Made by a program: the position numbers and the translations under genes. Below the pieces are notes generated by a model. That model had not been told where the DNA came from, ran no database searches, and saw nothing but the letters and a program-made list of their open reading frames with translations. Below, in pieces: positions 11,548 to 32,779 of a stretch of 64,000 nucleotides of DNA (position 1 is the first letter of the stretch; each line of letters opens with the position of its first letter). The DNA is from Conoideocrella luteorostrata. Taxonomy: Eukaryota; Ascomycota; Sordariomycetes; Hypocreales; Clavicipitaceae. Where the stretch lies: NCBI GenBank assembly GCA_032433595.1, contig JASWJB010000023.1:62001-126000 (forward strand). The letters run 5' to 3'.

Positions 11548-13818
11548 GTCTAAAGAATGAAAATTTCAAGGGTCAGATGATTAGGTGGGTGCAACTGATG
11601 TAAAGGCAGCGTCGAGGACTTGGTTTGACGACGGTTACATTAGGCATGAAAGTTGACGGCTGTGGTCGGCGACTTGGAGTTGACCTCAGCTACTCTAATC
11701 GCGGTCACTCTAGAAAGTGGGGTCTACTCTGCTGCGGCTCTGGTCGGGCTTGTGCCGATGATGATAGCGACATGGGTCATGAGGGATAGCGTTCGTTGGC
11801 TGTGATGTTTTGTTAAGAAGAACGCTTGCGGGATTAAAAAGAGAGCCATATGGGGAATTAATTGGATCTCCCCAATTTGGTAACCGTATCGCACACAATT
11901 TGTAAGCACGGGGTCAAGCCAGCGAATCGCCGGGGTCACGTAGGCATACTGCGGCATGGGCTTATTCAAGACCATATAATTACCAAGCCTGGGGCATTTA
12001 AATAATAGTTGTTTGTCGTCTCGATTGAGCTAGGACAAGCAGGATGTTACGCCGTGCTTTGGCAGGCAGACAGCGCTTCTTCTCCAGCTATTAGCGGGAT
12101 CGAAGGAAGCTGGGGCTGTGAAATCGGTTTGCGACGGAGACAAGAGGCCGGATAGACTCTCTTACTTCTATGCTGTATGCATTAATGTGGCAAACGTTGT
12201 ATTAACATACTATAGTATCCAACAGTATCTAAAAGTGTGAGAGACAAATTTGCGACGCGAAACTTGTTGCGGACTTCTCTTGTCACCTGGGCTCCTTACC
12301 CGATGGTCACTCCAGATTCCAGGTGAAGAGTGTATGTACTAGCCAGCCCACCAGCCCCTGTAGCTTGCTCATTACAGCTTCTTTTGTGGGTCGAAACACA
12401 CAGCGGAGCTCCAAACGTCAGTGCAGAATGAGGAAGCTTCAGGAGACCCACCAGATGCTCACTGCCAGAGGCCACTTTTCATGTTTAAACTATTTGCGCC
12501 AGCCGAACAAGTGGCAAGCGGGACGGAGCTACACGTCGAACGTCAACCATTTAGCCCTACCCTATACTTTCAAAACTCAGCCACTTTTGGCACTCTCTCT
12601 AGTCAATTCCCATCGTAAGGGTAACAGCTCCAATGTTGGAACAGACGCCGCGAACTGCGTTGAGAAGGACCTTGAGAAGGACCTTGAGAAGGAGAGGCAT
12701 GGAGGGATTGTGAGCTGGTAAACTCCTTTGCACAAATAGCCCCCGCAATTTGGGGCGAGGCTGGAACTCACGCTAAGTGGAGTGCCGACTTTGCAGCCGC
12801 CGCCACGACTCGACCGAAACGTAAGCAAGGCAAGAGACCAAGCGGCTTGATTGCAGCGGTGGAAGCTGCTGGTAGAAGAGGAGAACCGCATGCTCCGCTG
12901 TATATTGAAAGAAATGCCCTGTGGGACTGCCGTTCACCAAGTCTTGAGATCTACGTCATTGCAGAGCACACCACCAGTCGCGACCGTTTGCAGGCTTAGC
13001 TTTATCGCCGATTCATCCAACGGGTTTCTTGGCCGCTGTCCGGTTCTAACTGCGACAGCGATGGCGGACAATGAAAGGATCAATCGCCCAGCGCCACTTG
13101 GTCGATTGCAAGAAAGGATGCTGCAAGAGCGAGGGTATAATGTACACGCTGCAGGTAATCCCCTTATCATACATACGCGAGGCAGAGAGTATTAAAATGA
13201 GAGATGGCTAAGTCGCGGAGCTTGGCATAGCCAGCCCGCGTCGGTCCTCTCCACCTGTGATTGCACTTACTGTCACAACATCGCCTATAGAGGTTGCATC
13301 CTGTCACACGCAACAGCACAACAAGGCGTCACTTGCGCATGCATGGAATTGCACATAATCCGGTGGAATTTAATTCCAATCCTTCAGGCCTTTGAATTAC
13401 TAATAATTCTGAAAGCCTTAAATTAGCTCACAATGGAAGAACTAAAAAATAGTCGCACGCCACGATATGTGGCCATAGACGCCGGTAAGGGGTATCGTGA
13501 GATTAGCTCAAGCCACCGAATCCTTCCACGACAGAATAAATAGGAATCATCGGAAACTGGCAAACTTGGTGAATTCAGTCTTGGAAGCTATCGAATTCAA
13601 TGAATTTGGCTTGTTCTAACGGAATTCTAGATAAACGGCATATGGGGAGAGATTTCAGGGATAAATAGTCGTCAAATCCCTCGTCAAACTAGAAAGAAAT
13701 CAGGGACATAATTCCGCTGTACGCATCAGATGATCATAGCGGCTCAAATCATGTCAGATTCTCTCTGAGCTTGCGCTGCCTGAGCGTCATATCGCGTGAC
13801 CCCTGCGATGAGATCTAA
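11548..13818. other. 2.3-kb intergenic stretch, no gene supported
   Basis: Only short, mutually overlapping frames are present. At 12463-12485 a short exact match of about 21 bases (GCCAGAGGCCACTTTTCATG plus T) to the 83-bp element is seen without its termini. A 12-base tandem (CTTGAGAAGGAC) lies near 12660-12700. The part around 13540-13720 resembles decayed LTR-like sequence. Confidence 0.4.
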
Positions 13819-16800
13819 CTAGCCCGAGGAACACGTCTGTGTAACAATGTCTCGCAGTTTTGGATGGCGGAATATATTTGCCACAGTCATCTCAAGCCCA
13901 ACTTGACGGGCTTCGGCTATCGCCTTCATAGCAGTAATAGAGTTACCCCCAAGCTGGAAGAAACTATCGTCCAAACCGATCGTAGCAGGTTCAATATTCA
14001 GAACGTTGCCCCAAATCTTCTGGACTTTGGATTCTGCCAATGTTGTCGGTTGCTGAATGGACTTTAGTCCACTGATTTGTGTTTGAAAGCTGGTCGGCAG
14101 AGCTCGGCGGTCAATCTTTCCACTCGCATTGACAGGCATCCTGTCCAGGACAGTGACCATCCGTGGAACCATGTATGACGGCAGTTTAGCTTGCAGTGCG
14201 TCGTTGAGCTCATCTATAATTTTGCGTCGCACCTGTTCCTGCAGCGGTTGACTGGTGAGCGAGTGATACGGTCTACCATGGTTCTCTACAGGGAATCGGA
14301 ACAAGACTCTGCTCGTGCCATGCTTTGGTAAATGGCGGTGGAATATGGCGTCTAAAGCGCCCCTTCCAGACGCTTGTCGAGCCCAGCTTATTTCGACGCG
14401 GTAGCCCGCTTGTCTTGCCAGTTCAACCAGATCCATTGTGGACAGCGAAGGGCGATCGTGGGCAGATTTATGAACGGACGAGAGCCAATGTTGGTCGGAG
14501 TTTTCGACTCCTTGCGCTCGTGTGGCAAGTGCTTCAACTACGTTTCTCTCAATCGCAATTTTGCTGTTAGGGATATTGCTAATGGCGACAATAGATGAGG
14601 TAGAAGGGCCTTGTAAGATCTGCCGGAGAGATTGGTGATCTAGCCCTTGCTCTACGAAGTCGATCCATTCATTGTCAATAGTCTCTTGAATCTGCAAATG
14701 CTTCTGGGTGTTGTGAGTCCGGACATGGACAACAGCGGCATATCGAAAACAACTAAGCTCGTTGGTGGCGTGCACTCTTTTAGGGAGAATCTCCACGTGC
14801 TGCACTCGACCTGGAAATTGACTCGGCAAGGCAGTGAAAAACGCAGGATCAATGAGCAGTTCTGACTCAGCTCTCTCCATGTCGGTCACTATCCGTCGAA
14901 TCTCATCCTTGGTTGCATTTGCGCCAGAAACCTTTAGTGCTCTTGCAACAAGAAACTCTTTGTGGAGAGGATAGGATCGAATGTCCCCGAAGAATAGTGT
15001 TTTGACACCTTCGAATCGCAACAAATCCTGGATGACTCTGAAGAGGTACGTCTGGCTGGGGAAGTATTGAACAACCGAGTTTAGAACGACAAGTTTTGGT
15101 GAAATCAGGTTATGCAGCTGTACAAGATCTGCCGCTGTGGCATTTAACATTCTGACCTTGTCTGCCAGAGCGGGAACCGAGCTTGCACCATTGACGATAA
15201 AGTCGACCGCCCGCCGAGACGGTTCCAGGCCAAAGTAGCTTCGTAAGCCCTGGGCTAGATTGAAGAGGATCATACCGGAGCCTGTTCCTATCTCAAGAAC
15301 GTCCTCAGGAGGACAGCCGTTACGTATTGCTTCAAGTGTGTCATCCAGCCACTCATTCATTTCCCCCTTGTCGATATCGCTCCCATCGTACATGGAAGTC
15401 CATCCAATAAAATCTCTTCCAATGGTCTCCGACGAAATGTTATTGATAGGTGCATATTCAGCGTCCCATTGCTTCTTTCGCACGTCAACATGCTCCATCT
15501 CTTCACTATTTCGTGGCTGTTCCGCAACTGCAGCCGCGCCATCCTGGAGCGTGACAAAACCGGCAACAAGTGTCTCTTGGTTGTCTTGATGTTTTAATAT
15601 GGCGGCAGCATCAGTCACGCTCTCGTGACTGCGAAGGACATGCTCAATTTCACCAAGCTCAACACGCTGTCCTCGGATCTTGACCTGAGTATCCTTACGA
15701 CCGACGAACGTCAGGCTTCCATCCTCGTTATACCGGACAAGATCGCCTGTTTTGTAGAGCCGGCCGCTTCGTCCGGGTCTGCCCGGGGCGCCTCGCAACA
15801 GCCATGTCGGGTCGTCAATAAATGCAGCTGCGGTCCTTTCTGAGTCGTTGAGATAGCCATCACCCACAAGGGGGCCTTCGAGGAGCAGCTCGCCGATGCA
15901 GCCAGGCGGCAGTAAGGAGTCATGGTCGTCCGAGTCGACAACCCAACACAGCACACCGACTCCTTTTCCTATATGTGTGGCATCTACAAGACGCGCCGGC
16001 TTGTCATTGACGGTACTGATTGGCGTGCATTCGCAGGGCCCGTACAAGTTAATCGTTCGCGCTTTTCCCCACCAAGCACAAACATCTCGGACATGTAACG
16101 CCTCACCAATGAACATGATGGTCTGAACTTTAGCCATCCGTTCGGGAGCTAGTACCCTGGCAACTGATGGAGTCAGGATCATAGAATTAGCATCAAGCAA
16201 TGTGATAGCCTTTTCCGGATTGTCCAGCCGACTTTTCTCATCTGGAACGCACAGGCAACCGCCTGCCGTGAGTGTTGCGAAGACGTTGTAGATAGATGCA
16301 TCAAAGCTGTACGAAGAGAAATCGAAAACCCGAGATGTTGCTGTAAACCCCAACATTCTCTGCTGATAATATAGGGCGGATGACATGTTCCGGTGTGTTA
16401 TCACCGTGCCTTTTGGTGTTCCAGTGCTTCCTGAGGTGAATACCACGTACATAGGAGCGGATGGGCTGGGAAGGCACGGTTGCATGTCGGGTTGCAAGTC
16501 TGGCTGATCTCCCGACGCGGTAAAGAAGTGAGGATCAACTATAATTACCTCTGATGCTAACTCCAAGCTTAACAAATAGTTCGAGCGTGATGATAAAATA
16601 AAGTGTGCTTTAGCTTGCTGAGTAATGCCGTGGAGGCGCTGCTTAGGCTGGGAAGAATCAAGCAACAGAAATGCAGCACCTGTTTTTAATACACCCAGTA
16701 TTGCAACAGTAGTCCACATGGACTTCTCGAAGCATAATGGCACCAACACTCCAGGCTTGATACCAAGGTTGGTAAGCCGGTTTGCCAAACGTATGGCAAG

Positions 16801-18339
16801 ACGTTCAAGTTCGTCGTATGTCAATTCACCATCCCAAGCACACACGGCAGGTGCACCGGGTTGAGCTCTAGATCTTTCAGTAATCATTTCTTGGACGTGT
16901 TTCTCAGATGATACCGGGACCACGCTATTCCACTCCCAAATCTCTCCTAGATCCTCAGGGTTTGACATTCCAATTTCTGCCAGCACCTGGTCGGGGGATG
17001 CGTGATCGAGTTGATGCATCACGAACTCCAGTCTCTTCAACAACTTCCGAACTACCCATGGTACGATCATTCTTGGGTCGAAAAATGCTGAGGCCGTAAT
17101 ATTATCGGCTTCGAGCTGTATCTCGATTGTTAAACCGTAAGAGGTGAACAGCCGTCCTTGGTTGTTGATTCTCCACTTCCCAATTGCATCTTGGGTTACA
17201 GGAGCCTTTTCCGATTGGATAATTAGGTTTGTCTGAATTGCACATGCCTGGCTTGCCCCAGGACATATCTTAGAAATGTGTTGCAGCCCCACATGTTCGA
17301 ACGGGATCATGTCTGTTGATTGCTGTTGCACTCTCTGGAGATACTCTGATACCCTCTGAGTCTTTGCCCATTTTATGCACACAGGGACCGTTGTAGCTGT
17401 TGGAGCGATCATTCCTTCAATGCCAACAACTGGGGCATTCCTTCCGGATAGAGTGGCGCCAAACACAACATCCTCAGAATTGATCATCCGACCTGCCACG
17501 AGAGCCCATGAAGCGCGTATTAAATTTGAAGTTGTAATGCCGTTGGAATGTCGATGAGGTAGTAGAAAATGATGCTGGGTTACCTCATCTGCGACTGGCT
17601 GGTCCAGCGACGTAGAGACGGAAGGGAACGACGAGGGTTTGCAATCCGCCAACGCATGTTTCCAATAGCTCACCAGTCCTTCGCGACCTTGGTTCTTGAT
17701 GTAATTAATGTATGCTTGGAACTGTGATCCGTTTTTGACTGACCCGCTTCGGTATATCTGGTTTAGTGAGTCCATTATTAGGCGTACAGACCAATTGTCG
17801 CAAATTGCGTCATGTATCGTCCATATCAGCCATCTTGGTGTTCCTGCGTCTTTTATGAGTGCATAACGGGTCAGCGGTTGGCCCAAATGCATCGATTGTT
17901 CCTTGTCAGCCTCAAGATATCCATCTAGGCTGTCAGCTTCAATCCAGCCGATCTCTTCATCCAACACTACTTGTAGAAGGCCAAAGCTCTCGTACTCAAC
18001 AAGTCTTGTCCGAAGGATGGGCGTGGCACGAGATAGCTGCTCAAATGCTGTACATATGTCTTTGACTACCACGCTGTGAGCCAATTCCAGGACGTTTTGC
18101 CGTATGAAATCTCCTGGACGTTTCGATTTCGACGACATAAGGCTTTCTTGGCGTGGCGTGCAGGGATAGGCATCGTGTATAGCAGTAGTCTCTAGTGTAT
18201 AATGGTTGGCGATTTCTTGACGAAAAGATTCGACATCAAATACCTTGCCCAGAAGAGCAAATGGCTCAATTCCTCCTGGCGTGGCCTTAGGTGTGTGGAA
18301 TCCTTGGTGGGCATTCTCAGAATCGTTGACGGTCATCAT
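13819..18339 (-). CDS. non-ribosomal peptide synthetase, single module C-A-nMT-T
   Basis: An intronless 1,506-residue protein starting at tandem ATGs. The domains in order are: condensation (about 50-450), adenylation (about 480-930) with FTSGSTGTPKGT at 634-645, FDASIYN at 679, YGPCEC at 766 and GRKDTQVKIRGQRVELGEIE at 880-899; an inserted N-methyltransferase (about 950-1230) with VLEIGTGSGM at 1014 and NSVVQYFP at 1087; the end of the A domain with LPSYMVP and NASGKIDRR at 1404; and a carrier domain whose phosphopantetheine Ser is S1467 in LGGNS. The layout equals the N-methylating module of enniatin/beauvericin-type synthetases, so the product should contain an N-methyl amino or related acid. 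The condensation motif reads HDAICDN rather than HHxxxDG, so the second catalytic His is Asp. There is no starter A-T, no terminal condensation, thioesterase or reductase domain, and no other NRPS or PKS is in the window. The hand-read A-domain code is about D-A-Y-I-M-I-L-P-I-K; the substrate is not assigned. Confidence 0.93.
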   Translation of the reverse strand: MMTVNDSENAHQGFHTPKATPGGIEPFALLGKVFDVESFRQEIANHYTLETTAIHDAYPCTPRQESLMSSKSKRPGDFIRQNVLELAHSVVVKDICTAFEQLSRATPILRTRLVEYESFGLLQVVLDEEIGWIEADSLDGYLEADKEQSMHLGQPLTRYALIKDAGTPRWLIWTIHDAICDNWSVRLIMDSLNQIYRSGSVKNGSQFQAYINYIKNQGREGLVSYWKHALADCKPSSFPSVSTSLDQPVADEVTQHHFLLPHRHSNGITTSNLIRASWALVAGRMINSEDVVFGATLSGRNAPVVGIEGMIAPTATTVPVCIKWAKTQRVSEYLQRVQQQSTDMIPFEHVGLQHISKICPGASQACAIQTNLIIQSEKAPVTQDAIGKWRINNQGRLFTSYGLTIEIQLEADNITASAFFDPRMIVPWVVRKLLKRLEFVMHQLDHASPDQVLAEIGMSNPEDLGEIWEWNSVVPVSSEKHVQEMITERSRAQPGAPAVCAWDGELTYDELERLAIRLANRLTNLGIKPGVLVPLCFEKSMWTTVAILGVLKTGAAFLLLDSSQPKQRLHGITQQAKAHFILSSRSNYLLSLELASEVIIVDPHFFTASGDQPDLQPDMQPCLPSPSAPMYVVFTSGSTGTPKGTVITHRNMSSALYYQQRMLGFTATSRVFDFSSYSFDASIYNVFATLTAGGCLCVPDEKSRLDNPEKAITLLDANSMILTPSVARVLAPERMAKVQTIMFIGEALHVRDVCAWWGKARTINLYGPCECTPISTVNDKPARLVDATHIGKGVGVLCWVVDSDDHDSLLPPGCIGELLLEGPLVGDGYLNDSERTAAAFIDDPTWLLRGAPGRPGRSGRLYKTGDLVRYNEDGSLTFVGRKDTQVKIRGQRVELGEIEHVLRSHESVTDAAAILKHQDNQETLVAGFVTLQDGAAAVAEQPRNSEEMEHVDVRKKQWDAEYAPINNISSETIGRDFIGWTSMYDGSDIDKGEMNEWLDDTLEAIRNGCPPEDVLEIGTGSGMILFNLAQGLRSYFGLEPSRRAVDFIVNGASSVPALADKVRMLNATAADLVQLHNLISPKLVVLNSVVQYFPSQTYLFRVIQDLLRFEGVKTLFFGDIRSYPLHKEFLVARALKVSGANATKDEIRRIVTDMERAESELLIDPAFFTALPSQFPGRVQHVEILPKRVHATNELSCFRYAAVVHVRTHNTQKHLQIQETIDNEWIDFVEQGLDHQSLRQILQGPSTSSIVAISNIPNSKIAIERNVVEALATRAQGVENSDQHWLSSVHKSAHDRPSLSTMDLVELARQAGYRVEISWARQASGRGALDAIFHRHLPKHGTSRVLFRFPVENHGRPYHSLTSQPLQEQVRRKIIDELNDALQAKLPSYMVPRMVTVLDRMPVNASGKIDRRALPTSFQTQISGLKSIQQPTTLAESKVQKIWGNVLNIEPATIGLDDSFFQLGGNSITAMKAIAEARQVGLEMTVANIFRHPKLRDIVTQTCSSG

Positions 18340-18957
18340 TACAGACTCGATGAAGATGTAAAACGTTATCGCGCCAGAATTAGGTCTTAAATTATTTGGG
18401 GCAAATGTCCGTCGCTAATCGATATCCAAAAATCTTGAGGCAGAATGGGGGAGGTAGAACTGCGTCTAATAGAAGTCGCAGATAACGACACCACCATTGT
18501 CAAGAAGAGCATGTTACAAATGTGTTACGGATCACAGTGAGCCGGTTACGGATTCTGACCCAGTGGAGATATCGTGAGACAACCTTCCGGGTCCGATGAC
18601 GGAATTCATAGATAGTAGTCATCTATAAGAAGAGGTCTAATTCCTCGTCATATTAGATAGAATACAAGGACAATTCCACACATTCAGACATCCATAGCTG
18701 CTCACATTGTGACAACCATGTTATACTACCTCGGCAGAATTAGAAACCGGCTGGCGCAGTAGATTAAATTACAACTAAAGGTTAGGGGTCTATAGAACTG
18801 GGCATCTACTGAACCATGCATCGATAATTCGGGTTTATGCGATGCGTTCATCAGCAGCTGCGAGGATTCAGCAGTGACAAGTATACTGTACAAAGGGTGC
18901 CTCAATGTGATTTGACATCGTATGGACTTCGTTACTGTCCCCGTCTCCGCTAATCTG
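18340..18957. other. NRPS upstream region with LTR-like relic
   Basis: The promoter side of the minus-strand NRPS. At about 18600-18714 lies an LTR-like relic that reads, on the minus strand, TGTCACAATGTGAGCAGC... to GAATTGTCCTTGTATT and then TGACGAGGAATTAGACC. Similar copies lie at about 30470-30583 and 60478-60561. A direct role in regulation is not shown. Confidence 0.45.
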
Positions 18958-19225
18958 TAGCTGTGCGATGCTTTGATTATGCAATTGTGCCGTGCTATAG
19001 TTATACAACTGTGCTATGCCCTAATTATGCAGCTGTGCCGTGTTCTGTCGTCATTGACTATGCAGCTGTGCTGTGCTCTGCCGTACTCTGCCTTGCTCTG
19101 ATTATGCAACTATGCTGTGCTCTGGCTTGGTAACTATGCCATGCCATGCCGTGCTTTGACGTGCTCTGATTATGCGGCTTGCCGTATTCTGATTATGCAA
19201 CTGTACCGTGCTCTGGTTATGTATG
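18958..19225. repeat. degenerate minisatellite (about 25-36 bp units)
   Basis: A run of about nine imperfect units built on the core CTCTGATTATGCAACTGTGC followed by CGTG. Units vary by short insertions. One more unit (CGTACTCTGATTATGCAGC) reappears at 19331-19349 after about 105 bases of unrelated sequence. There is no open frame through the array. It lies between the NRPS and ALA synthase genes. Confidence 0.75.
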
Positions 19226-19349
19226 TAGGGTGCAATGCAAGCAGTCGCTTCCATTGGCGGATCTTTTTAGTCTATTGGGGTAACAAGCTCACCTTCTTGT
19301 TTTCTTACAATGTAACTGTTACCTGTTTTACCGTACTCTGATTATGCAG

Positions 19350-20794
19350 CTCTGCCCAAGTTAATTCACAGAAGAAACTATCATCGGTATACCAGGCTAA
19401 AAAAATGCCTTGGCTAGCCGTTTGGACGACTCTCGCATGCATGGTTGGACTTTTCACAACATCGCGCTGGCTGTGGCTTAGGTCGATATGTGGAGATGCC
19501 TTGAGTTGGAGTAATTGAAGTGAGACCTGTCTTGTACGTAAAAGCGCATAATCTCATTATCTATCCAGGCACTCATTGGCTAGGCATGGCTCTTTACTGA
19601 TGAATCAATGGCTAATCAGCATCGCTATTTCAATTATTTCGTTAGCTCGCTTGAGGTTATTACTGCCGCGCTATTGACAGGCGGATATGGCCGGCTCAGT
19701 GGGTGTGACATTTACCAGTGCCAAGACAACTCACAGTGGTAACAGTCCAACCTCCAGTCGATGCCTGTCAAAAGTCATCAGACCACTTGTCTTTTGTGAG
19801 GACGTCTGTGTTCCACGGCCGCGGGAAATATAGCCAAATTCGGTTACCCGGCGCCGGCCACTTCCAACGATCTGTGGAGCAACTCCACTGTAGGTAGAGC
19901 TTGGCAAGCTAGGGGGGGGCTGTGCATTTTGGTGAAGAGTGAAGTTGTATGTTTCGGCACACACACACAAGATAGATTGGAGTCCGGGTTCGGTGTCCAC
20001 TAAGGTCTTACCGATTTGCTGAGATGTGCCGAGTGGTCAGGCGGCTCGGCGGTAATGTTTCGAAAGCAAACCGGCGGACGCTGAGATCGGACTCCACGGT
20101 GACAAGCAAGACATAGAGGTAATTTCTATTGAGCGCCACGGCTAAACATACACAATGCTGAGATAGGAAGAGTGTGTTGTGTAGTGCCACAATCCAGAGA
20201 TATCACCGAGTTGGGCTGTTTTAGGAAGACATGGGCTGGATCTTGGACATGACAAGTGTATTATGTCCAATAATCCCAACATAACCCAGCGCTCATGTAT
20301 TTGGGTATCTTTGTTTCTCATCACTAACGGTTCTGCCAGAATCGCATTAGGCAGTACTCCTACTAAGCCTTTGCGTGAGTTATGATTATATCGTGAAGGA
20401 GACTTCTCAAATGGCGTGATAGATATCATTATCGAACATCCATAACGCCTCCACAACAAATCACATCGCGCTAATATCATAAACTAATACGATTCAAAAA
20501 ACAAGAGACTGAAATATAGCAATGATTCGTTGAGACTATCTGTAATCACTAGCCTTCCTCGGTCTGAATCTATCCAACATATATCCTAAATTCCTTTTAA
20601 AAATTTCGCTTATCCATTTCCCGACACCTCAACTCATTTTCCTCTCCCACGATGGGTCGGGACCTGGCCGTTAACCCAATACATGCAAGAAATGGTATCG
20701 TGAATCGTGTGAGCCCTAAGAGATGATAGCGGCGTTCTGTTGCCTCTGCCTTCCTGGAATACCCCCCGAGATATTTACGCGCGTCAAAGTTTCC
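19350..20794. other. intergenic between NRPS and ALA synthase genes
   Basis: No supported gene. A segment near 20025-20105 has a tRNA A-box-like string (GCCGAGTGGTCAGGCGG) but does not fold as a tRNA. The final part is the 3' flank of the ALA synthase gene. Confidence 0.4.
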
Positions 20795-22330
20795 CTAAGG
20801 GTTGGAAGGGACATACTGTGGCTCACGCAAACTGAGTTGTTCATTAGTCCATAGCGGCTTATTCAGAGCCTTTTCCGGTTGGCAGACACCGAGAAATCCC
20901 TCGGGTCGAATCGCCGCCCAATGACTCGTGCGTTTGATGTCCAGCTGAGTCCAGACGGCATCGATAGCCGTAATAAGATGCTCAATGTGCTCAGAAGTGT
21001 GTCCCGAGGTTGGTGTGATCCGAAGCCTCTCCTCACCTTTAGGCACGGTGGGATAGTTGATGGCCTGGATATAAATACCCCAATTTTCAAGTAAGAGGTC
21101 CGACGCCTTTTTAGAGAGCTCAGCATCGCCGACGAGCAGCGGAACAATGTGTGAGGGGTTAGGGATAACGGGAATATCTTTCGCGATAAGCGCCTGCTTT
21201 GTCTGACGGGTATGGAGCTGCTGGAGAAGACGGTCGCCATCGAAGGAAGCCTGGTACTCGATTGAAGTCTTCGCGCCGGCAAGTACAGCTGGCGGCAGGG
21301 AAGTTGTGAAGATGAAGCCGGGTGCGAGAGAGCGAATCATATCGACTAGCTTGGATTTACCCGCTATATAGCCACCAACACATCCGTATGCCTTGCCAAG
21401 AGTCCCAGTGATAATGTCGACCCTATCCTGGATGGCCGATCTGCCCACGACACCCCACGGCCGCTGGGCGTTGGCTTCGAAGTCAAGATGCTCTGCGACG
21501 CCAGCGCCCCGGGGTCCGTACATGCCAACGGCGTGGACCTCGTCGAGAAAAGTCAGAGCGCCGTACTTTTCAGCCAGGTCGCAGATCTTCTCAATTGGAC
21601 TAACGGAGCCGCTCATGCTGTAGACACTCTCAAACACGACGATCTTGGGGACCTCTGACGGCAGCGAAGCAAGCTTGGCCTCCAGGTCAGCCACGTCATT
21701 GTGCTTAAAAATTATTCTCTTGGCCTTTGAATGTCTCATGCCTTGGATGAGAGAAGCATGGTTCATGCTGTCGGATAGGAAGACACAGTCCGGAAACAAT
21801 GACCCCAACGTGGCCAGAGTGGCATCGTTGGCCACATAGCACGACGAGAACACAAGTGCCGCCTCCTTGGAGTGCAGGCTGGCAATCGTCTCTTCTAGGG
21901 CAACGGCATGTTGATTGTGACCGGAGATGTTTCTTGTGCCTCCGGAGCTGACACCGTACGTGTCAAGCGTCTCGTGCATATCCTTGAGCACCTTGGAATT
22001 CCTACTCATGCCAAGATAGTCGTTGGAGCACCACACGATAACTTTGCGACTTTTCTGAGCGAGATGAGCCTGGGGGAATTCCTTGGCCAGACGGTTCACA
22101 TTATTGAAGTACCGATACGACTTGTCGGCGTGCTTCTTGTCTAGCTCGTTCTGGTAGACTTGGTCATAATCGAAATAGTGTGTGACTTTGGCTTCAGAGT
22201 CGGTGCGCAGATGGCGCGTCTGCACATGCCTGAAAGTAGCGCGAGGTGTGAAGCAATTCCCGAGAGGGGCTCGACATATAGTCTTGCTTATCGTGCCGAC
22301 GCAGCGTGCTATAAACTGAGTAGTAGACAT
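20795..22330 (-). CDS. 5-aminolevulinate synthase, cluster-associated copy
   Basis: An intronless 511-residue protein. It condenses glycine with succinyl-CoA to 5-aminolevulinate using PLP and normally works in the mitochondrial matrix. The first 45 or so residues are Arg/Thr/Ser-rich and presequence-like. The catalytic core is complete: [12 protein letters not shown] (about 131-142), [31 protein letters not shown] (Asp of the PLP pyridine contact), and the PLP lysine in [15 protein letters not shown] fungal-type C-terminal extension follows. No Cys-Pro dipeptide occurs anywhere, so the haem-regulatory motifs usual in eukaryotic ALA synthase presequences are absent. It is also shorter than typical fungal housekeeping enzymes of about 600 residues or more. 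A housekeeping copy must exist elsewhere for this to be a paralog; that is inference. It is co-oriented with the NRPS and separated from the oxidase gene by a 2.9-kb region. Confidence 0.95.
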
Positions 22331-25277
22331 AAAGAGTGCAAGGCTTACCGGAGCAGCCTAGTTAACTATATTCCTAAACTTTAGCTTTTAGATCGCCTAC
22401 CATCTATCTCGAGCTATCAAAGGCTGAAAATAGCACTCATGCCGGACGTTACTCCGACATTTGGTGCATCAAGAGTCTATATTTACAGTCGATCCCGCGA
22501 GCTTGATGCTCTAGCTTAGAGATATAGTGTCGCACTTCACATATAAATTTAGCGTTGATCCCGACAGTTGAAGATCAGATGCACTTTGCCTCATACGAAC
22601 CGGCCCCTGAGCCTAGCTCCGCCGAAACCCTGCTCAATAACCGTCGATATATAGTTCCTCAATTGTGGAGTCTGGGGCTGTTTGTGCTGCTTCCTTCGCC
22701 TCCTAAAGCTAGTGCACTGCAAATTGTGATTACTGATGTAGCTGGTACGAGTACTGTGAATATGCAGCATCCCACGAATTCATGATTTAGCGTCGGCCGG
22801 ATGCTACGGGGCCGGAGAGACGCGTGCAGGCAAATGATGCGATACACGGGCTAGCAAGTTAGGTCGCGCATCTTCGATTTTAAAGCGGGAATAACCGTAT
22901 CCAATTACAACTGGGTACAGTATTTCTTATCTTCCAGTTGATTTATGACAAATCACCCGCTTTGTAATTGGTTCAGTATGGCATAGCCTCCTTCTGTCGG
23001 TCCGACCCCTCTTAGCTATTTCGTCTTTTCTTGCGTACGTCGCTCGAGCCCGTTCGCTCAAATCGCCTGCCAAGCCGAGTGCCAAGCAACTGGCCAATTC
23101 CATCAGGGTGGTCTGCAGGTGTCGCGTCTTGTCACAACTGGGATTCTGATATAGCAGAGTGAAGGGCAAGACTTCTCATGTATTTCCTTGCTTGGTAGTG
23201 ACAAGGTAGCACTCAATTCTTGGCGGTCTTAATCTCTAACCCTCACCTTAGATTTGGTCCTTCTCCTCTATTTATGCTTGCTACTACCCTGCAGTGAAAC
23301 GTTTGCTAGCCGCATGATATTCTCCCCCCGATGACCTTAGGTGCATTGCTAGTTCTACGACTCCGCGCGGGTCATCGAGATCGGTGGTCTCTGACACATC
23401 TGCTGCTACGCTTAACATTTTGACGGCACGATTGAGATCGTCCACCGAGCCTTCCCGCTCAGATCATTGACCGGGCATGTTCGCATCTGGTGTTTCTACT
23501 TGGAACCACCCGCGTCTGAGAAGTCTAGGCACCCGCTCCTCGCGACGTTGTGCCCACACACCAAAGGGCCTTGCGCGAAAGGGTCTTGTGCACTGCAACT
23601 AACCCTTTAAACCGTGGATTGTATAGGCAACTTCCACATTAGTATTGAAAAGACCCGTCTTTGAGTGCCAGTAACGGCCTGCGCTGTAAATTGTTCCCCG
23701 AAAGAGATGTTGCGGCTGTCAATATCAAAGGTACGTCTAGCAACCGAATATAGTCGCGTTCCACAAACTACGGAAGCATAGACCATACGGCGATCAAAAA
23801 TGTCATATAGGATTAACACATATCATTACTCTATTCTCCAGCAGTGACACTTGACCATCCCCACCACGAGTCCTACCACGGAGCCGTGGCAAACCCGACG
23901 ATACCCGTTGCAGCCCATATAATTGCGTGATGACATGCAGATGGCTAGCAATGTTAATCGGCCGGCCTTGGCGGATGCAAGCGACGCAGCAACCGGAAAC
24001 AATCCGTAGCGGATATTGTAGTGGCTGTCCAGCACGTCGTACCCGAAAATCAAGTACAACCTGTTTGGAGAAGATATATTGGTGCCCCGCATCCCTGTCG
24101 ACTTTCTTTGTGGATCTAGCGGTGCTGTCAAGAGGGGCGCCAAACATGTCTTGTACTAGCCTCAGTCAAGACTTCCAGATGTGGATCAGATGGCAGGTTT
24201 ACGCGTAACGGCTTGCCCTTTGAGGCATGGTTGGCGCTCCAATACGTCAAGACCATCGCCGTGCCCAGCCAAGTGGGCTGCAACTCTTACCCAAACGGAA
24301 TCAGCCTACTTCTCTTGCAATATCAGCATCAAGATTTCATCGAGAGTATTGAGATCAGTACGGATACCGTCCAATATCTGTGGACGCGTCTTCTCCCGGG
24401 CCGACACCAAAAGAAGTCAACGAATAGTAGATGCCATCTTACCTGAAATTGGCTCGTGAAGATTTTGATTTTGCCCAGACGCTGAGTCAGGAGCTCCTCA
24501 CAGCCCTTCAGAAGACGGAAATAGAGCACGTCTTCGACGGCAGATTGTCGTTAACGCCGGACAGTGGCCCCCCGGTCGGATAAGTACCTGAGGTTGACAA
24601 ATTCTACGTTGCTAGGGTCGTCTAGGTAACGCACTCGGCAGGTGTCTACGCGCTCTGGCTGAGGTTTTGAGGGGCAAATCGCACATGGCTGTCCAATAGT
24701 GTTAATCATCAAGGCGAGTAACATCTTGCATTCTCGTACACGAGGAGAAGCATCCGTAGCCCTTCATCTACTCCGTACACCTTGTTGGGTCTGTTGTCAA
24801 CAGAATCCGAGAATTGACCAAGATGCACCGTATTATCACCACCTCGTTCAAGTATCTGTCAGGCTCTAAAGTGTTGTCACTCTTAGGCTGGAACCAGATT
24901 TGGGCATGAGCAAGCAACCTCCAACCCCGATGCCAGCTCACAACGCTAAGCGGTATGATGATACAATGGCAGCAAACATGACCGCCACGCCTTATCCGCT
25001 TCCTCCGCCAACTTGGCAGCAGCAACTCAGGCGTGAGCGGCCGCTTCCGAGGCACCAACGCGGATGCTCGATCCGCCCAGCTGACGGCTAGCAATAACAA
25101 GTGCGGTACAGTTGCCGTGGGCCTGTCCATCTGGCCCAGATAAGCAATCAAAATGCGCTAGCTCTACTGCCGCGCCCCTGGCTCTCGGGGCGAAATACAT
25201 ATAAAATAAATTCGCAACTCGTGCGGCGATTAAAAATTCCATCGAGGCATCCACGTCTCAAGTTCCCTTCAGCAGCC
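22331..25277. other. 2.9-kb divergent region between ALA synthase and oxidase genes
   Basis: It holds the promoters of the minus-strand ALA synthase and the plus-strand FAD oxidase. No intact gene is supported. Protein-like stretches survive without a start or common frame, for example GLPFEAWLALQYVKTIAVPS in the plus frame ending at 24446, and SVVNRIRELTKMHRIITTSF in the plus frame ending at about 24909. These suggest a decayed gene, family unknown. An inverted CGG-N8-CCG site lies at 22443-22456. Confidence 0.4.
22443..22456. promoter_or_regulatory. CGG-N8-CCG inverted site, possible Zn2Cys6 factor site
   Basis: The sequence CGGACGTTACTCCG lies 113 bases upstream of the ALA synthase start. 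Inverted CGG half-sites are the usual targets of fungal Zn2Cys6 regulators. One occurrence is weak evidence. I did not find the same spacing in front of all other cluster genes. Confidence 0.2.
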
Positions 25278-26775
25278 ATGGCATCGGCTCATTCGTCCTT
25301 CATCATTGTCGGCGCCGGCGTTTTCGGGGTATCGACCGCATATCATCTCATAAAGCAGTATCCCAAGGCATCTGTAACAATTGTGGACCGGGATAATTAT
25401 GATGCCGACCATCGCGTTGCTGCCTCTTGGGACTGGAACAAGGTAATGCGGGCTGATTACCAGGACCCTGTGTACTGCGAATTGGCTCTGGAAGCACAGG
25501 ATGTCTTCACATCAGACCCCCTTTGGAAGCCCTTCTTTCATCAAACCGGGCTCTACTGGATGTGTGGGCGCGACTACGCCCGAAACTGCATGGCGAACTT
25601 CGAAAGGCTGGGCCGCACAACTGGTATAACCGTATGGTCGGTAGAAGAGGCCCGCAAGATGTTTGGAGGCTTGTTCGAGGCGTCTGACTACACTGATGTT
25701 GAGCAAGTGCTTGTCAACGAGACGAGTGGCTGGGTCGCGTCCACAGACTGCCTGCGGGCCGTCACTCAGAGGATTTTAGAGCTGGGCGTCAAGTACGTTT
25801 CCGAAGAAGTGGCCACTCTGCTACTCGACCGCGACGGCAACTGTATTGGCGTTCAAACCGCAACAGAACGACAACTGCGTGGCTCTCATGTCATTTTGTG
25901 TACTGGAGCTTTTACACCGAAACTGCTTGAGCTTAGTGCAGCAGCAGCCGGGGTGGACGATCTGCGTGCTGGGTCAAGAATCCTCGCCGGTGCTGTCACC
26001 ACGGGCATGGTACCGCTGGACGACGACGCTTGTGCCCGCTTTGCAGAGATGCCAGTGGGTTTCCAAGGATACACGAGTAAAAAATGTCTGGTGTTGACCC
26101 CCGAATGAGATTTATAATCCCGATGCAGCACGTAATACTGACAAGAGGTTCACAACCTGCAGTGCCCTTCATCGGCAGTCTCCCCCCAACCAAGGACCGG
26201 GAGCTCAAGTGGTGGGGACAAAAGATCTTCAAAAACACAACGGAGGTACTTCCCGGTCGCTTCATCTCCATGCCACCCACAGATGCAGACTACGCCCAAT
26301 GGCGAGTTTCTAAGACGCTGAAAGAGGATGTTGCGCAAGTCAGCAGCGCATTTTACGGCAGCGAGGCTGCGACTTGGAAGCTGGAAAAGCACCGCATCTG
26401 CTGGTAAGTCTCCCTGCTGCATTGTATTTCCTTGTATCTCCCCAGAAGCACCTCAAAACAGGGGCGTGTACATGTACAGGGTAAATGTGCTAACTTCGGT
26501 CACGATACAGGGACGCCTTCACCACCAGTTCCGACTTCATCATCTCACCGCACTCGTCCTCCAAGGGCCTATATCTCGCCACGTGCGGCTCTTTTCACGG
26601 CTACAAGTTCTTCCCGGTGATTGGAAAATACATTGTCCAAATGCTGCATGGTTCGTTGCCGGAGAAGCTTGCAAAGAGATGGGCCTGGGACCGCGAACGG
26701 CCTGAGCCGGCCGTCAATTGGCCTCGCTGGGAGATGAGGGATTTGATGGATCCAGCCGGGACTTCGAGACCGTAG
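25278..26775 (+). CDS. FAD-dependent amine oxidase (fructosyl-amine / sarcosine oxidase family)
   Basis: Three exons: 25278-26076, 26163-26403 and 26511-26775, with introns of 86 nt (GTAAAA...GCAG) and 107 nt (GTAAGT...ACAG, CTAAC branch). This gives a 434-residue protein. The start sits in a good context (AGCCATGGC). The N-terminal Rossmann motif is IIVGAGVFGVSTAYHL, followed by acidic VDRD. The cysteine that carries covalent 8a-linked FAD in this family is seen in RICWDA, split by intron 2, and the C-terminal FAD loop is CGSFHGYKFFPVIGKYI. Family members oxidise secondary amines such as N-methyl or N-fructosyl amino acids to imines, making H2O2. There is no clear C-terminal peroxisomal SKL (it ends SRP). 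Lying 7 kb from an N-methylating NRPS, it could act on an N-methyl amino acid or on the product; that is inference. Frames and splice sites are intact. Confidence 0.88.
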
Positions 26776-28091
26776 CCGCAAGAATCTGTATCTCTGCTTT
26801 AATTGATTCTGTTCATGTTGAAGAAGTGAAATGATATTGTTACTGTGTAATGTAATAGGAAAGTGCGCCCACTACACCAATAGACCAGAAGATCCGCCAG
26901 TACTACCAGACAGCAATTCTGCACCTTGCAATTTTGAAGTCGCGAAAAAAAAACACGGAAATAGCGTTGCGTACCTATGATACTGAATTACATTATTTTA
27001 CGCGACGAAGGTTATTAGAGCAGGTAGCTAGCACAATTTAATTAAAGTGGTGTTCCAAAAGTAGGCGTTGGGCCGATGCCGGGCAAGAAAGTATGGGAAC
27101 TCTCTGTATTGCACTGAAGCTTGCCTCGCAGGATGCGTGCCTGGAGCTCTGCTCGTCAGAAAGAGGGGTGAGTCGGACAGCATGCACCAGCTCTCGAGCA
27201 ATCGGTCCACCTGACTCCTAGTTGTGCGAGCGCAGGCTTGGGTTTTGCAAGCGATTCGCTGATGTCATATGGAGTCAGCCGTGGCTGACCCACGATGGCG
27301 GTGCGCGCCGCCCCGCCCCCGCGCCACCTGACAGATTGACAGATAAGCACCATCTTTTAGTGAGGTGGGGAGGAGCTGGAGGAGTTGTCTCGCTCCAACC
27401 ATGCAGTCTCGTATCACTTGAGAGGAGTTATACAAGCCGCCAGTAGAACGGTGAGGCTAACAGGAGCCCACAATAGCATGGCCAGTGAAGGCGAGCGATG
27501 CGTGCACGTGCTTCAGATAGGACATCAGGGTCGTCGAGTTGCTGTCCTTCCGCGATAGCAGCATTGCATCTCCTAGAATTTCGAGCGGTCCAGTTAGTGC
27601 AGCCCAGGCCCACTTTACCCACTTTTGACCCTTTTATTCTGGGAACTTCTAGTGACAACTTGTCACCGGCCAAATCCCTGGCGACGTGATGTAGCTCTTT
27701 GTAAAGAACGAGTCTGATGACTTCTATCACCATAGAGAAATAAGCGGCAACAAAGTAGTTACCTATTATTTGCTTAGTTCTATTGTTTGGCCTACCCCAC
27801 AGTAAATAAACTGGACCGCTCGGATTTCTAGGAGATATTCCGTATCCGGGTACGTTAAAGACGGCGTCTGGGCCAACAGGCCACGCCACTTATTGGTGAG
27901 ATGCCGATATCGGTGCAACTGTCAAGAAAGCTGATGACAAAGCAAGGGCTAGCCCCCATAAATCCAAATGTAGGTTGGGGCACCATTTCATATTCCTACA
28001 CTCACACCAGACGACTGACTCTTTTTGAAAAGTCGTACTCGGGCGTAACTAGCAACGCCACACATCACCATTGCCAGGCAAATCCGTCAGA
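26776..28091. other. intergenic upstream of the deaminase gene
   Basis: Contains the 3' flank of the oxidase and the promoter of the deaminase, plus one unit of a 120-bp repeat (27218-27336). A 153-codon minus-strand frame (27428-27889) has no recognisable domain and is not called. Confidence 0.4.
27218..27336 (+). repeat. about 120-bp direct repeat, unit 1
   Basis: Begins TAGTTGTGCGAGCGCAGGCT and ends near CCGCGCCACCTG. It is about three-quarters identical to 30783-30905 in the same orientation. The two units bracket the hydroxymethylbilane synthase gene. It contains the shared palindromic core AGCGATTCGCT. Confidence 0.6.
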
Positions 28092-29078
28092 ATGGCCAAT
28101 ACCATTACCGTGGGCACTCGTGATTCCCTGCTCGCCATCGTGCAGGCTGAGCTCGTTGTGTCTGCGCTCCGAAAGCATTTCCCGAACGATTCCTTTCCCA
28201 TCGACGGCTCCAAGACCACAGGCGATCTGGACACCAAGACAGCCCTTCGCGACTTTGAAGGCACGGGTATCTGGACCACAGACCTCCAGAATAGGCTCAT
28301 CAACGGCGAAGTCGACATCGTTGTCCATTCCCTCAAGGACGTGCAAACAACACTTCCCGAAAGCACGGTCCTCGGAGCCATCACAATTCGTGACGATCCC
28401 CGCGACGTCCTCGTGATAAAAGAAGCACTGGTCAAAAAACACGGCTACAAGCACATTAGTGAACTGCCTGAGGGCAGCATCATTGCAACTAGTAGCATTC
28501 GTCGGGTTGCCCTGCTGGCAAGGAAGTACCCGCACCTGAAGTTCAAGGATGTACGAGGAAACCTTCCGACGAGACTCAGAAAGATGGAAGACGACCCGGA
28601 GATGAGTGCTCTTGTCACCGCTGCTGCGGGATTAGCCCGCATGAACTGGGAAAATCGCATCTCACAATACCTGGACGCTGACAACGGCGGTATCCTCTAC
28701 GCCGTAGGACAGGGCGCTCTTGGAATAGAGTGTCGAGCTGGAGATGAGAGGGTTTTGCAGGCTCTGCAAAAGCTTGAGAACCCCGACACTCTTCTGCCGT
28801 GTCTGGCAGAGAGGAGCATGCTGCGGGAGTTGAATGGTGGCTGCAGCGTGCCCATTGGAGTTGAGACCAAATGGGCGGATGGGAAGCTGAAACTGAGAGC
28901 CACTGTGGTATCTGCGGATGGGAAAGAGGGCGTGGACATCGAGCTCGAGGAGCCCGTTGACACCAGGGAAAGGGCAGAGGACATGGGCAAGAAGGCAGCG
29001 AGTGAGCTGGTAGCCAAGGGAGCAGACAAGATTTTGGACGCCATCATCAAGGCTAGCCCACATGGCAATACTCAGTGA
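28092..29078 (+). CDS. hydroxymethylbilane synthase (porphobilinogen deaminase), cluster-associated copy
   Basis: A single exon of 328 residues from ATG 28092 (context CAGAATGGCC). It polymerises four porphobilinogens to hydroxymethylbilane on a dipyrromethane cofactor and is usually cytosolic. Visible motifs are ITVGTRDSLLAIVQAELV at the N terminus, catalytic Asp in HSLKD, TSSIRR, DVRGNLPTRL, AVGQGALGIECR and the cofactor-binding Cys in LNGGCSVPIGV. Deviations from the family are notable: the stretch normally reading G-x-K-[SGA]-[LI]-[WF]-T-x-E-L-E reads EGTGIWTTDLQ, so the conserved Lys (E. coli Lys55, human Lys98) is Thr; HSLKDMP reads HSLKDVQ; and the Gln after the RR motif is Leu. Length is near normal, and there is no intron. 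It is probably a diverged paralog with altered activity, or a reduced-activity enzyme. It shares the region with ALA synthase, but no PBG synthase is present. Confidence 0.95.
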   Translation: MANTITVGTRDSLLAIVQAELVVSALRKHFPNDSFPIDGSKTTGDLDTKTALRDFEGTGIWTTDLQNRLINGEVDIVVHSLKDVQTTLPESTVLGAITIRDDPRDVLVIKEALVKKHGYKHISELPEGSIIATSSIRRVALLARKYPHLKFKDVRGNLPTRLRKMEDDPEMSALVTAAAGLARMNWENRISQYLDADNGGILYAVGQGALGIECRAGDERVLQALQKLENPDTLLPCLAERSMLRELNGGCSVPIGVETKWADGKLKLRATVVSADGKEGVDIELEEPVDTRERAEDMGKKAASELVAKGADKILDAIIKASPHGNTQ

Positions 29079-31402: not shown

Positions 31403-31869
31403 CTACGCGTAGCTGGCAAACTCATGGATGAAAGGGCCCCACGCAACAGCTGGGATGGTCTTAATCTTGCTGTTCACGGCGTTGGGTGTTTCTTTAATAC
31501 CATACTCGCATGCAACCAGATTGCCCTCGGTTGATACCATCTAGAGAAGAGGTATAAGACAATATTTTTGATAGACTCGTCGACTTTCATCACCTAAGCG
31601 ACGCCAATTTGAATGGGCGCATGACTGCCGTTCCCTGCAACGTAGAGGTCACGGTGGACGAGGATCTCGCCCCCATGAGGATCAAAGTGACGATGGGGAA
31701 GATGGGGCTCGAGGAGCTCGTCGAGGCTGTTCTTCTCCTGGATTGCGTATTGCCGAAGAATTTGGTTCTCCTTCAAAGCAATGGCCGCAGCACGCTTAGT
31801 AGCATAATGATCGACGAGGAAACTGTTGCGCAGCTTAACCGGAATGACGGTGTTAATGCTTTGGAACAT
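31403..31869 (-). CDS. small unrecognised protein, two exons
   Basis: The proposed model is 31869-31603 and 31540-31403, joined over a 62-nt intron (GTCGCT...TCTAG), giving 134 residues. The first exon has a Lys/Glu-rich helix-like part and then HLPHRHFDPHGGEILVHRD and GSHAPIQIG. The second exon runs smoothly from that point to FIHEFASYA and a stop. The matching of frames on both sides of plausible splice sites is the support. I do not recognise the family. The protein is short and could be the surviving C-terminal part of a larger gene whose upstream exons are lost. No signal peptide or membrane segment is seen. Confidence 0.35.
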
Positions 31870-32779
31870 TGTGAAATATAAGACGTGGTGTCAAAGGTGC
31901 AAACTAAGATGGTCGCTGTGGGAATGGTGAAGACGACTGAACATGTTCTGGACATCTGGGACCGCTTTTATAGACTGCTTGACGGACCTTCCTGTGTTTG
32001 ATTTCCAGCACCTTGTACCCATCTCCTCCATTTTCTAGTAGGGCTTGATCATCCAAAATGTAGACACAAACAAATTGAGCCTTTCGCAGGTGATAATACG
32101 GACAGTAGTATGATCATGCTACTGGTGAACTGCAGATTGGTTGATGGTGGCTCTTGCGGGCGACGACTCGGAAGGTAAAATAATATAATTGTGCTGTTGC
32201 TAATATATTATGTAAACGAAATAATTAACAGCTCTCGCCGCAAGTGGGCAGTTACAGCCCTTCAGGACGATATGTGGCTGCATGACAGCAAAGCGTGTAA
32301 TTGGTAATAGCTCTCGTGGTTGAGAGATGGCTCATTAGTAATGTGCTAAATCGTACTTTTCTTGCTCTTGACAGTAGCCGTCTCAGGATAGCAGGCTTCG
32401 CTCCTGGGGTGATACGTTTGTAGATTAGGGCACCATATGGCACCTACGCATCCCACAAACGGCACCCAACGTTATGAATCGGGCGCCGATATCGCATAGT
32501 TCCCATGTGCGCCGCACATCAGCATGTTGGTTGGATAGAGCGGGGAAAAAAAGTAAGAAACGAACAAGTGATAAACGGTGGTTGAACATCAACCTAATAG
32601 TCCGAGCGAGTCTTTTCGATCCACCGCCTTTGCTCAAATGCCGTCTTCCGCCGACCGACGGGTCAGATCTCTTCACTCCGACTATGAAGCGTACTACGAA
32701 TTGCCGGCCGTTTCTATCTCTAAGCTTTGACGTGCGGCTCTTCTCGTGCCCCTTCAGCGACCTGCACATTCTCAGCAAC
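31870..32779. other. intergenic, promoter side of the phosphotransferase-like gene
   Basis: No independent gene is supported. The frame of the next gene stays open back to 32474, so its start could lie within this stretch (ATGs at 32474 and 32684). Confidence 0.4.

What the first reader, a model, noticed from the sequence alone, without database searches (positions are those of the whole stretch)
13819..29078. NRPS locus carrying two haem-pathway enzyme copies and an amine oxidase: candidate undescribed pathway
Seen: within 15 kb lie an N-methylating single-module NRPS, an ALA synthase, a fructosyl-amine/sarcosine-type FAD oxidase and a hydroxymethylbilane synthase, with no unrelated intact gene between them. 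Known: ALA synthase and HMBS are steps 1 and 3 of haem synthesis and are normally single-copy, unlinked housekeeping genes in fungi; in bacteria, pathway-dedicated ALA synthases feed C5N units into natural products. Inference: the locus makes a product that uses 5-aminolevulinate or a pyrrole, or it protects or supplies haem during such synthesis. I know of no described fungal cluster with this combination, but I could not search.
Basis: partly seen in the sequence, partly recalled or inferred. Interest (0 to 1): 0.88.

Follow-up and report, generated by a model that had tools for sequence, protein, structure and literature searches.

The report
Fungal locus with spare haem enzymes
In an insect-killing fungus, extra and altered copies of two haem-making enzymes lie beside a one-module peptide synthetase and an amine oxidase; together they likely form a small dedicated pathway whose product would be built from haem precursors, and our searches found a similar gene partnership reported only once before in fungi.

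Summary
The window is from Conoideocrella luteorostrata (Clavicipitaceae). Its four genes (NRPS, ALA synthase, FAD amine oxidase, hydroxymethylbilane synthase) are open and consecutive; no other gene was recognised between them. ALAS and HMBS are extra copies: 2 ALAS and 3 HMBS genes were found, against single ALAD, UROS, UROD and ferrochelatase genes. The two have separate origins. The ALAS belongs to a well-supported clade with proteins of Claussenomyces, Penicillium coprophilum and a metagenome; it lacks the haem regulatory CP motifs of the housekeeping copy. The HMBS branches within Clavicipitaceae and is diverged, but 13 of 13 key catalytic residues are kept. The NRPS keeps A, N-methyltransferase and carrier motifs, while its condensation domain has lost the catalytic histidine. 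Best reading: a dedicated tetrapyrrole-precursor branch, likely free of haem feedback, beside an A-nMT-T/amine-oxidase pair resembling fumisoquin chemistry. Linkage of the four genes in another genome was not shown; the product is unknown; no expression data were available.

The parts
13819..18339 (-). NRPS gene, C-A-nMT-T, about 1505 aa; motifs of A (TSGSTGTPKG), nMT (VLEIGTGSG), A10 (ASGKIDR) and T (GGNSI) kept; C-domain HHxxxDG reads HDAICDN (catalytic His replaced)
   Evidence: nearest relative P0242, 84% over full length
20795..22330 (-). extra 5-aminolevulinate synthase, 511 aa, no CP (haem regulatory) motif in its N-terminus
25278..26085 (+). amine oxidase exon 1 (donor at 26077 or 26086; the C143 paralogue favours 26086)
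26163..26403 (+). amine oxidase exon 2
26511..26775 (+). amine oxidase exon 3; the RICW motif that spans exons 2 and 3 aligns with the CW of the fructosyl-peptide-oxidase relative (FAD-linking Cys; its role is recalled)
28092..29078 (+). extra hydroxymethylbilane synthase (porphobilinogen deaminase), 328 aa

Best explanation
The four genes likely form a small specialised-metabolite locus in which extra copies of two haem-pathway enzymes would feed a product-dedicated tetrapyrrole branch beside an N-methylating NRPS module and an amine oxidase. Shown: ALAS and HMBS are extra, diverged copies that keep the key catalytic residues; the ALAS lacks the CP (haem regulatory) motifs that its housekeeping paralogue carries; the NRPS keeps A-nMT-T motifs while its C domain is losing constrained residues; the oxidase belongs to the fructosyl-amine/sarcosine oxidase family. 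Inferred: the ALAS enters mitochondria without haem control and overproduces 5-aminolevulinate; the only ALAD gene found in the genome (on another contig) turns it into porphobilinogen; the extra HMBS draws this into hydroxymethylbilane, which would partly close to uroporphyrin I because no extra uroporphyrinogen III synthase was found. In parallel the NRPS works as A-nMT-T, and the oxidase oxidises its N-methyl-aminoacyl group, as FsqB does on FsqF in fumisoquin synthesis. How the two halves join is not known.
For: Extra copies: 2 ALAS genes (window and C77, 71%) and 3 HMBS genes (window, C287 65%, C14 51%), with single ALAD, UROS, UROD and ferrochelatase genes. ALAS: with Claussenomyces, P. 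coprophilum and P0004 it forms a clade (support 100/100, stem 0.88); of 289 near-invariant columns 12 are changed in all four, against 3 changed in the own housekeeping copy. None of the four has a CP motif before the catalytic core, while C77 has MCPFL and RCPVM. ALAS equivalog 620.3 bits against cut-off 338.55; BioF, KBL and SPT models stay below theirs. HMBS: clade with P0122 and P0123 (100/100) nested in Clavicipitaceae (95/93); 13 of 13 recalled catalytic positions kept. So two independent origins meet in one place. NRPS: window-only losses at conserved columns are 6 of 76 in C and 0 of 89 in A+MT+T (Fisher p 0.009); the HH motif lost in the window is present in P0242 and in 23 of 23 further relatives checked. 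The closest own paralogue of the oxidase (77%, C143) lies next to a dimethylglycine-dehydrogenase-like gene. Raising ALAS (HRM cysteines mutated), PBGD, UROD and CPO together with a haem-binding globin gave fourfold haem in A. oryzae (PMC10940619, passages). Precedent cluster in M. gypseum.
Against: No other genome was shown to hold the four genes together: contig lengths of the close relatives differ (ALAS 449773, 554438, 50253; HMBS 15253, 87474; NRPS 25216). No transporter, regulator, P450 or release enzyme was recognised among the C23 ORFs scanned. HMBS changes 11 of 113 near-invariant columns (P0122 5, P0123 11), and the NRPS C domain is degenerate, which also fits decay. Of 32 human HMBS positions compared, six differ (K74T, F77W, P101Q, H120R, A151V, Q153L). 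Shared promoter words: one 8-mer, reached in 9 of 200 shuffles. 44 of the other 116 ALAS hits also lack CP motifs, many of them metagenome gene calls with short N-termini. No expression or metabolite data.
Confidence: 0.42

Rival explanations
1. The four genes are neighbours by accident: diverged duplicates gathered in a gene-poor stretch, with the NRPS decaying, and no common pathway.
Against: Two haem-pathway genes of independent origin this close together have a chance of about 3e-4 (my arithmetic, after the fact); all frames are open; differences from paralogues fall mainly at third codon positions (0.56-0.65 against 0.11-0.26); the M. gypseum precedent joins the same enzyme types.
Confidence: 0.25
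2. The ALAS and HMBS copies are a haem booster: they raise haem for stress defence or for haem enzymes elsewhere, and the NRPS is unrelated or needs that haem indirectly.
For: ALAS and PBGD are among the enzymes treated as predicted rate-limiting for haem in A. oryzae, where haem feedback on ALAS was also removed (PMC10940619, passages); title only, in its reference list: PBGD protects A. nidulans from nitrosative stress (the paper itself is not held).
Against: No P450, globin or other haem protein recognised among the C23 ORFs scanned; one UROD and one ferrochelatase gene only; it does not explain the NRPS and the oxidase.
Confidence: 0.18
3. Self-protection: the NRPS product inhibits haem synthesis, and the locus copies are resistant stand-ins for the targets.
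For: Diverged duplicates of primary enzymes beside an NRPS are a known pattern of target-based resistance (general knowledge); HMBS K74T, P101Q and Q153L and 12 clade-wide ALAS replacements.
Against: Two different targets in one pathway would both need replacing; the key catalytic residues are unchanged; loss of the regulatory motifs is not explained by resistance.
Confidence: 0.08
4. The oxidase is a sarcosine-type demethylase that supplies glycine to the ALAS, so oxidase, ALAS and HMBS form a glycine-to-tetrapyrrole line and the NRPS is separate. (This overlaps with the best explanation, so the odds given do not exclude each other.)
For: The closest own paralogue of the oxidase (77%) lies next to a DAO-FAO_M-GCV_T protein of the dimethylglycine/sarcosine dehydrogenase type; glycine is the ALAS substrate.
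Against: Sarcosine-oxidase models match far below their cut-offs (66.9 against 479.65 bits), and fructosyl peptide oxidases are closer in the PDB; glycine is rarely limiting (general knowledge).
Confidence: 0.12

Closest known systems
VLB cluster of Microsporum gypseum (Zhang, Rokas and Slot 2012, PMC3408471)
   Same: An NRPS gene beside ALAS and HMBS genes that have unclustered homologues; patchy distribution
   Different: VLB has 12 genes with ALAD, two ALAS, an ABC-type pump and a Zn2Cys6 regulator, and no amine oxidase is named for it in the text read; here there is one ALAS, no linked ALAD found, and an amine oxidase. Whether the genes are orthologous was not tested
Fumisoquin pair FsqF/FsqB of Aspergillus fumigatus (PMC6222107, abstract and passages)
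   Same: Carrier-bound N-methyl amino acid and a flavin amine oxidase of the fructosyl-amine/sarcosine oxidase family
   Different: The oxidase here is closer to fructosyl peptide oxidases than to FsqB (117.3 against 55.9 bits); the methyltransferase is inside the NRPS; ALAS and HMBS are present
Cyclizing ALAS triads of actinomycetes (C5N unit, PMC4525017, one section and passages)
   Same: An ALAS recruited to secondary metabolism
   Different: Positions 83 and 365 are Thr here, as in classical ALAS; the triads consist of amide synthase, ALAS and ALA-CoA ligase, without HMBS; no amide synthase or ALA-CoA ligase recognised among the C23 ORFs scanned here
Engineered haem overproduction in Aspergillus oryzae (PMC10940619, passages)
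   Same: ALAS freed of its haem regulatory motifs (there by mutated cysteines) combined with extra PBGD
   Different: Man-made, with UROD, CPO and a globin sink; no NRPS

Membership tests
classical 5-aminolevulinate synthase | passes the ALAS equivalog cut-off and not those of other alpha-oxoamine synthases | tested here: met
   620.3 against 338.55 bits; BioF 310.7 against 426.45, KBL 304.5 against 460; best PDB matches are mitochondrial ALAS entries 8eim and 5txr, 564 bits
classical 5-aminolevulinate synthase | active-site residues (R. capsulatus numbering, roles recalled) | tested here: met
   R21, N54, T83, N85, H142, S189, D214, H217, K248, T365 and R374 kept, K156 is R; 27 of all 31 positions compared are the same
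haem-feedback-regulated fungal ALAS | CP (haem regulatory) motifs in the presequence | tested here: not met
   0 CP in the window N-terminus; the own housekeeping C77 copy has MCPFL and RCPVM; in 2.1 kb upstream only two minus-strand ORFs, of 41 and 27 aa, hold a CP, neither like that exon
cyclizing ALAS (C5N) | T83S and T365S (also I149L/V, D231T) | tested here: not met
   83 and 365 are Thr; 149 is Met; 231 not assigned
hydroxymethylbilane synthase | hemC equivalog cut-off; dipyrromethane Cys and catalytic Asp/Arg residues | tested here: met
   286.2 against 164 bits; C261, D99, K98, R26, R149, R150, R167, R173 and R195 kept, human numbering, roles recalled
complete NRPS elongation module | intact C, A and T motifs | tested here: not met
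   A and T motifs intact; C motif HDAICDN in the window against HHAICDD in P0242
VLB-type NRPS-porphyrin cluster | NRPS with linked ALAS and HMBS | tested here: met
VLB-type NRPS-porphyrin cluster | linked ALAD, ABC transporter and Zn2Cys6 regulator | tested here: not met
   the only ALAD found is on C17; no transporter or regulator among the C23 ORFs scanned
VLB-type NRPS-porphyrin cluster | common descent of the genes with VLB | not tested
FsqB-type amine oxidase | closest to FsqB in sequence among solved structures | tested here: not met
   5t1e 117.3 bits, FsqB entry 6gg2 55.9 bits
fungal biosynthetic gene cluster | same genes linked in other species or co-expressed | tested here: inconclusive
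   no contig length shared by close relatives in the protein lists, which show 120 rows each; no expression data

The most novel reading that the evidence does not exclude
The locus makes a pyrrole-peptide hybrid: the oxidase turns the N-methyl group of a carrier-bound amino acid into a methylene iminium, which porphobilinogen or hydroxymethylbilane attacks through its free alpha carbon, giving the first natural product that joins an NRPS residue to a haem-pathway pyrrole. It would be fumisoquin chemistry with a pyrrole in place of the catechol.
Probability: 0.07. Interest if true: 0.92.

Novelty: new variant of a known kind. Interest (0 to 1): 0.57.

Why it matters
If true, fungi recruited haem-pathway enzymes beside NRPS genes more than once, here with genes of separate origin, and one step of that recruitment was the loss of haem feedback on ALA synthase. 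It would point to a class of fungal metabolites made from ALA, porphobilinogen or linear tetrapyrroles that genome-mining rules for NRPS clusters may overlook. It would also give natural ALA synthases without haem regulatory motifs, the same change that engineers made by hand.

Tried and rejected
Only ALAS/HMBS copies of the genome: rejected. Contaminant or chimeric contig: unlikely, since the HMBS nests within Clavicipitaceae. ALAS as a mislabelled alpha-oxoamine synthase: rejected; the label occurs in other settings, for example a '5-aminolevulinate synthase' beside sphinganine-type genes in a Pseudocercospora PKS cluster (passages of PMC8550591). Cyclizing ALAS: rejected. Hidden genes in the gaps: codon scoring and Pfam on 24 gap ORFs (4, 20) found none; 18 of the 39 gap ORFs of 60 aa or more were not scanned. 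The first codon scoring used two training genes out of frame and was redone, but the choice of window and flank ORFs sent to Pfam rests on the first version. Shared promoter motif: nothing convincing. A-domain code read as DAYIMILPIK by motif anchors (numbering recalled): no substrate assigned; the script failed on most relatives. Structure prediction was not used. Literature: ten searches, each showing at most 20 rows; in those listings and the seven papers opened only PMC3408471 described a fungal NRPS with ALAS and HMBS. Seen of the papers: PMC3408471 parts 1-3 of 4 and passages; PMC12352038 part 1 of 2 and passages; PMC4525017 one section and passages; PMC6222107 abstract and passages; PMC10940619, PMC8550591 and PMC9329541 passages only.
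Full report
What the window is. The ALAS of the window is identical over the 97% aligned to a protein named from Conoideocrella luteorostrata on a contig of 262,331 bases, the length of contig C23 in which the window lies. C. luteorostrata is a member of the Clavicipitaceae and a scale-insect pathogen. Its genome announcement (PMC12352038, part 1 of 2 and passages seen) names cephalosporin C and cyclopiazonic acid clusters; 'heme' and 'aminolevulin' do not occur in its main text.

The four genes. NRPS (-), ALAS (-), amine oxidase (+) and HMBS (+) follow each other over 15 kb. In the three gaps the best-scoring ORFs are 46-58 aa; one of the three top scores (8.2 against a shuffled 95th percentile of 6.0) goes slightly above chance. 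The gaps also hold 39 stop-to-stop ORFs of 60 aa or more, up to 153 aa. Pfam was run on 21 of them and three shorter ones, and no match reached a curated cut-off. The next genes are a HET-ankyrin protein on the left and an APH-like kinase on the right. Outside the gaps, Pfam was run on the four locus genes, one oxidase exon and further window ORFs (6, 10, 8, four of these last in the gaps), on 10 ORFs of the left flank and 4 of the right flank of C23; no P450, transporter or Zn2Cys6 regulator was seen there. C23 was fetched from 1 to 156,000 of 262,331, and short exons can be missed.

Extra copies. ALAS: window and C77 (71%); the six further matches are 25-38% identical. HMBS: window, C287 (65%) and C14 (51%, at least two exons). 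ALAD, UROS, UROD and ferrochelatase give one gene each (UROD as two matches at one place). CPOX and PPOX were not searched. C287 stands next to a glycine-cleavage H-protein gene, and Hypocreales proteins, many of them at 56-67% to the window copy, fill the list; in the tree C287 sits with those of its own family, so it is taken as the vertical copy.

Origins. HMBS: in a tree of 35 rows the window copy, P0122 and P0123 (metagenome proteins) form a clade (100/100, stem 0.33) that nests with Claviceps, Epichloe and the own C287 copy (95/93); the C14 copy has an end branch of 1.49 and its place is unsure. ALAS: in a tree of 34 rows the window copy, Claussenomyces P0002 (88%, from a metagenome-assembled genome), Penicillium coprophilum P0003 (76%) and P0004 (72%) form a clade (100/100, stem 0.88), apart from the own C77 copy. 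The named carriers belong to Sordariomycetes and Leotiomycetes and Eurotiomycetes (Penicillium, general knowledge), which fits horizontal spread or repeated loss; the data do not decide. The rows of both trees were chosen by me from the 120 best hits of each search, with the own copies added.

ALAS. It passes the ALAS equivalog cut-off, while its sister families stay below theirs. Eleven of twelve recalled active-site positions of R. capsulatus ALAS are kept and K156 is Arg; of all 31 positions compared 27 are the same. In the 120 listed hits the anchor YFN..NR lies 57-68 residues from the start in the four clade members, none with a CP motif, and 147-194 residues in the 54 hits with two CP motifs; 48 of 120 hits have none, which includes many metagenome gene calls with short N-termini, so absence in a single row proves little. 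The stronger points are the own comparison (C77 exon 1 carries MCPFL and RCPVM) and the lack of a comparable exon in 2.1 kb upstream of the window ALAS (on its strand only ORFs of 41 and 27 aa hold a CP). The first 43 residues hold seven Arg/Lys and no Asp/Glu, as in mitochondrial presequences (read from the sequence). In vertebrate ALAS the first two HRMs sit in the import signal and bind haem to stop import (PMC9329541, passages). Twelve of 289 near-invariant columns are changed in all four clade members.

HMBS. Thirteen of thirteen recalled catalytic positions of human HMBS are kept; of all 32 positions compared six differ (K74T, F77W, P101Q, H120R, A151V, Q153L), and Trp at 77 is also found in the own C287 copy (sequence). 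Against 117 other HMBS rows the window copy changes 11 of 113 near-invariant columns, P0122 5, P0123 11 and the own C287 copy 1. So the whole small clade evolves under altered constraint.

NRPS. Nearest relative P0242, 84% over the whole length and of the same size; most of the next ones align over about 60% of the query, as parts of larger synthetases, while P0252 (51%) covers 98%. The N-terminus reads like the linker before an internal C domain (my reading), so the gene looks like a module cut out of a larger enzyme and kept as such. The C motif is TIHDAICDNWS in the window and TTHHAICDDWS in P0242; the HH is present in 22 of 23 further relatives by pattern and in the last, P0252, by alignment. 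Window-only losses at conserved columns are 6 of 76 in C and 0 of 89 in A+MT+T (p 0.009; only 2 of those 89 lie in MT); P0242 itself has 3 of its own, and 6 more are shared, all in C, against 3 shared in A. Identity to P0242 is 78% in C and 83-88% in A, MT and T. The working unit is therefore likely A-nMT-T.

Amine oxidase. Best PDB relatives are 5t1e/5t1f and fructosyl peptide or amine oxidases; FsqB and monomeric sarcosine oxidases come after. A paralogue at C143 is 71-77% identical per exon and lies beside an 867-aa frame with DAO, FAO_M, GCV_T and GCV_T_C domains, the make-up of dimethylglycine/sarcosine dehydrogenases. [quoted passage not shown]

Selection. Against their paralogues the ALAS, HMBS and oxidase exon 1 differ at 0.56-0.65 of third codon positions and 0.11-0.26 of first and second ones, as expected of genes kept for their proteins; part of this was laid down in the paralogues.

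Precedent. In M. gypseum the VLB locus holds an NRPS, HMBS, ALAD, two ALAS, an ABC-type pump and a Zn2Cys6 gene, and its authors proposed porphyrin metabolism and iron acquisition; they stated that clustering of porphyrin genes was unique to M. gypseum among the 128 fungal genomes they compared. The C. luteorostrata locus is thus a second fungal case of NRPS plus ALAS plus HMBS as far as the listings show.

What is missing. No genome other than this one was shown here to hold two or more of the four genes together; each protein list shows 120 rows only. No expression or chemistry was available. The name of the product, the A-domain substrate and the way in which the two halves meet remain inference.

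Noticed in passing
G000:C14:184552-185563 (L029): Third HMBS copy with an intron and a very long branch (1.49), near three ORFs of the Na/Ca-exchanger family and one with a fungal transcription-factor domain; it belongs to neither the locus clade nor the C287 clade.
   Followed up: partly
G000:C143:96313-101187 (L041, L042): Paralogue of the amine oxidase (77% in exon 1) beside a dimethylglycine/sarcosine-dehydrogenase-like gene.
   Followed up: partly
window 7318-11565 (-): Large HET-domain protein with ankyrin repeats, a heterokaryon-incompatibility-type gene.
   Followed up: no
window 32429-34102 (+): APH-type kinase-like gene, the next gene right of the HMBS, possibly a member of the locus; not tested.
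   Followed up: no
window 31558-31890: ORFs on both strands (98 and 107 aa) with coding-like codon scores (15.3 and 14.1 against a shuffled 95th percentile of 8.4) but no Pfam match.
   Followed up: partly
window 54243-55720 (+): Beta-lactamase-family (PF00144) ORF followed by a second, slightly overlapping frame, likely one gene with an intron.
   Followed up: no
window 40514-41014 (-): Small ORF, rich in cysteine and tryptophan, with a signal-peptide-like start.
   Followed up: no
G000:C23:126001-132242 (L024): Glycosyl hydrolase 18 (chitinase-type) ORFs beside an ORF with LysM domains.
   Followed up: no
P0123 (JGI contig of 87,474 bases) and P0242 (contig of 25,216 bases): Metagenome proteins that are close relatives of the locus HMBS and NRPS; their contigs would settle the synteny question.
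   Followed up: no
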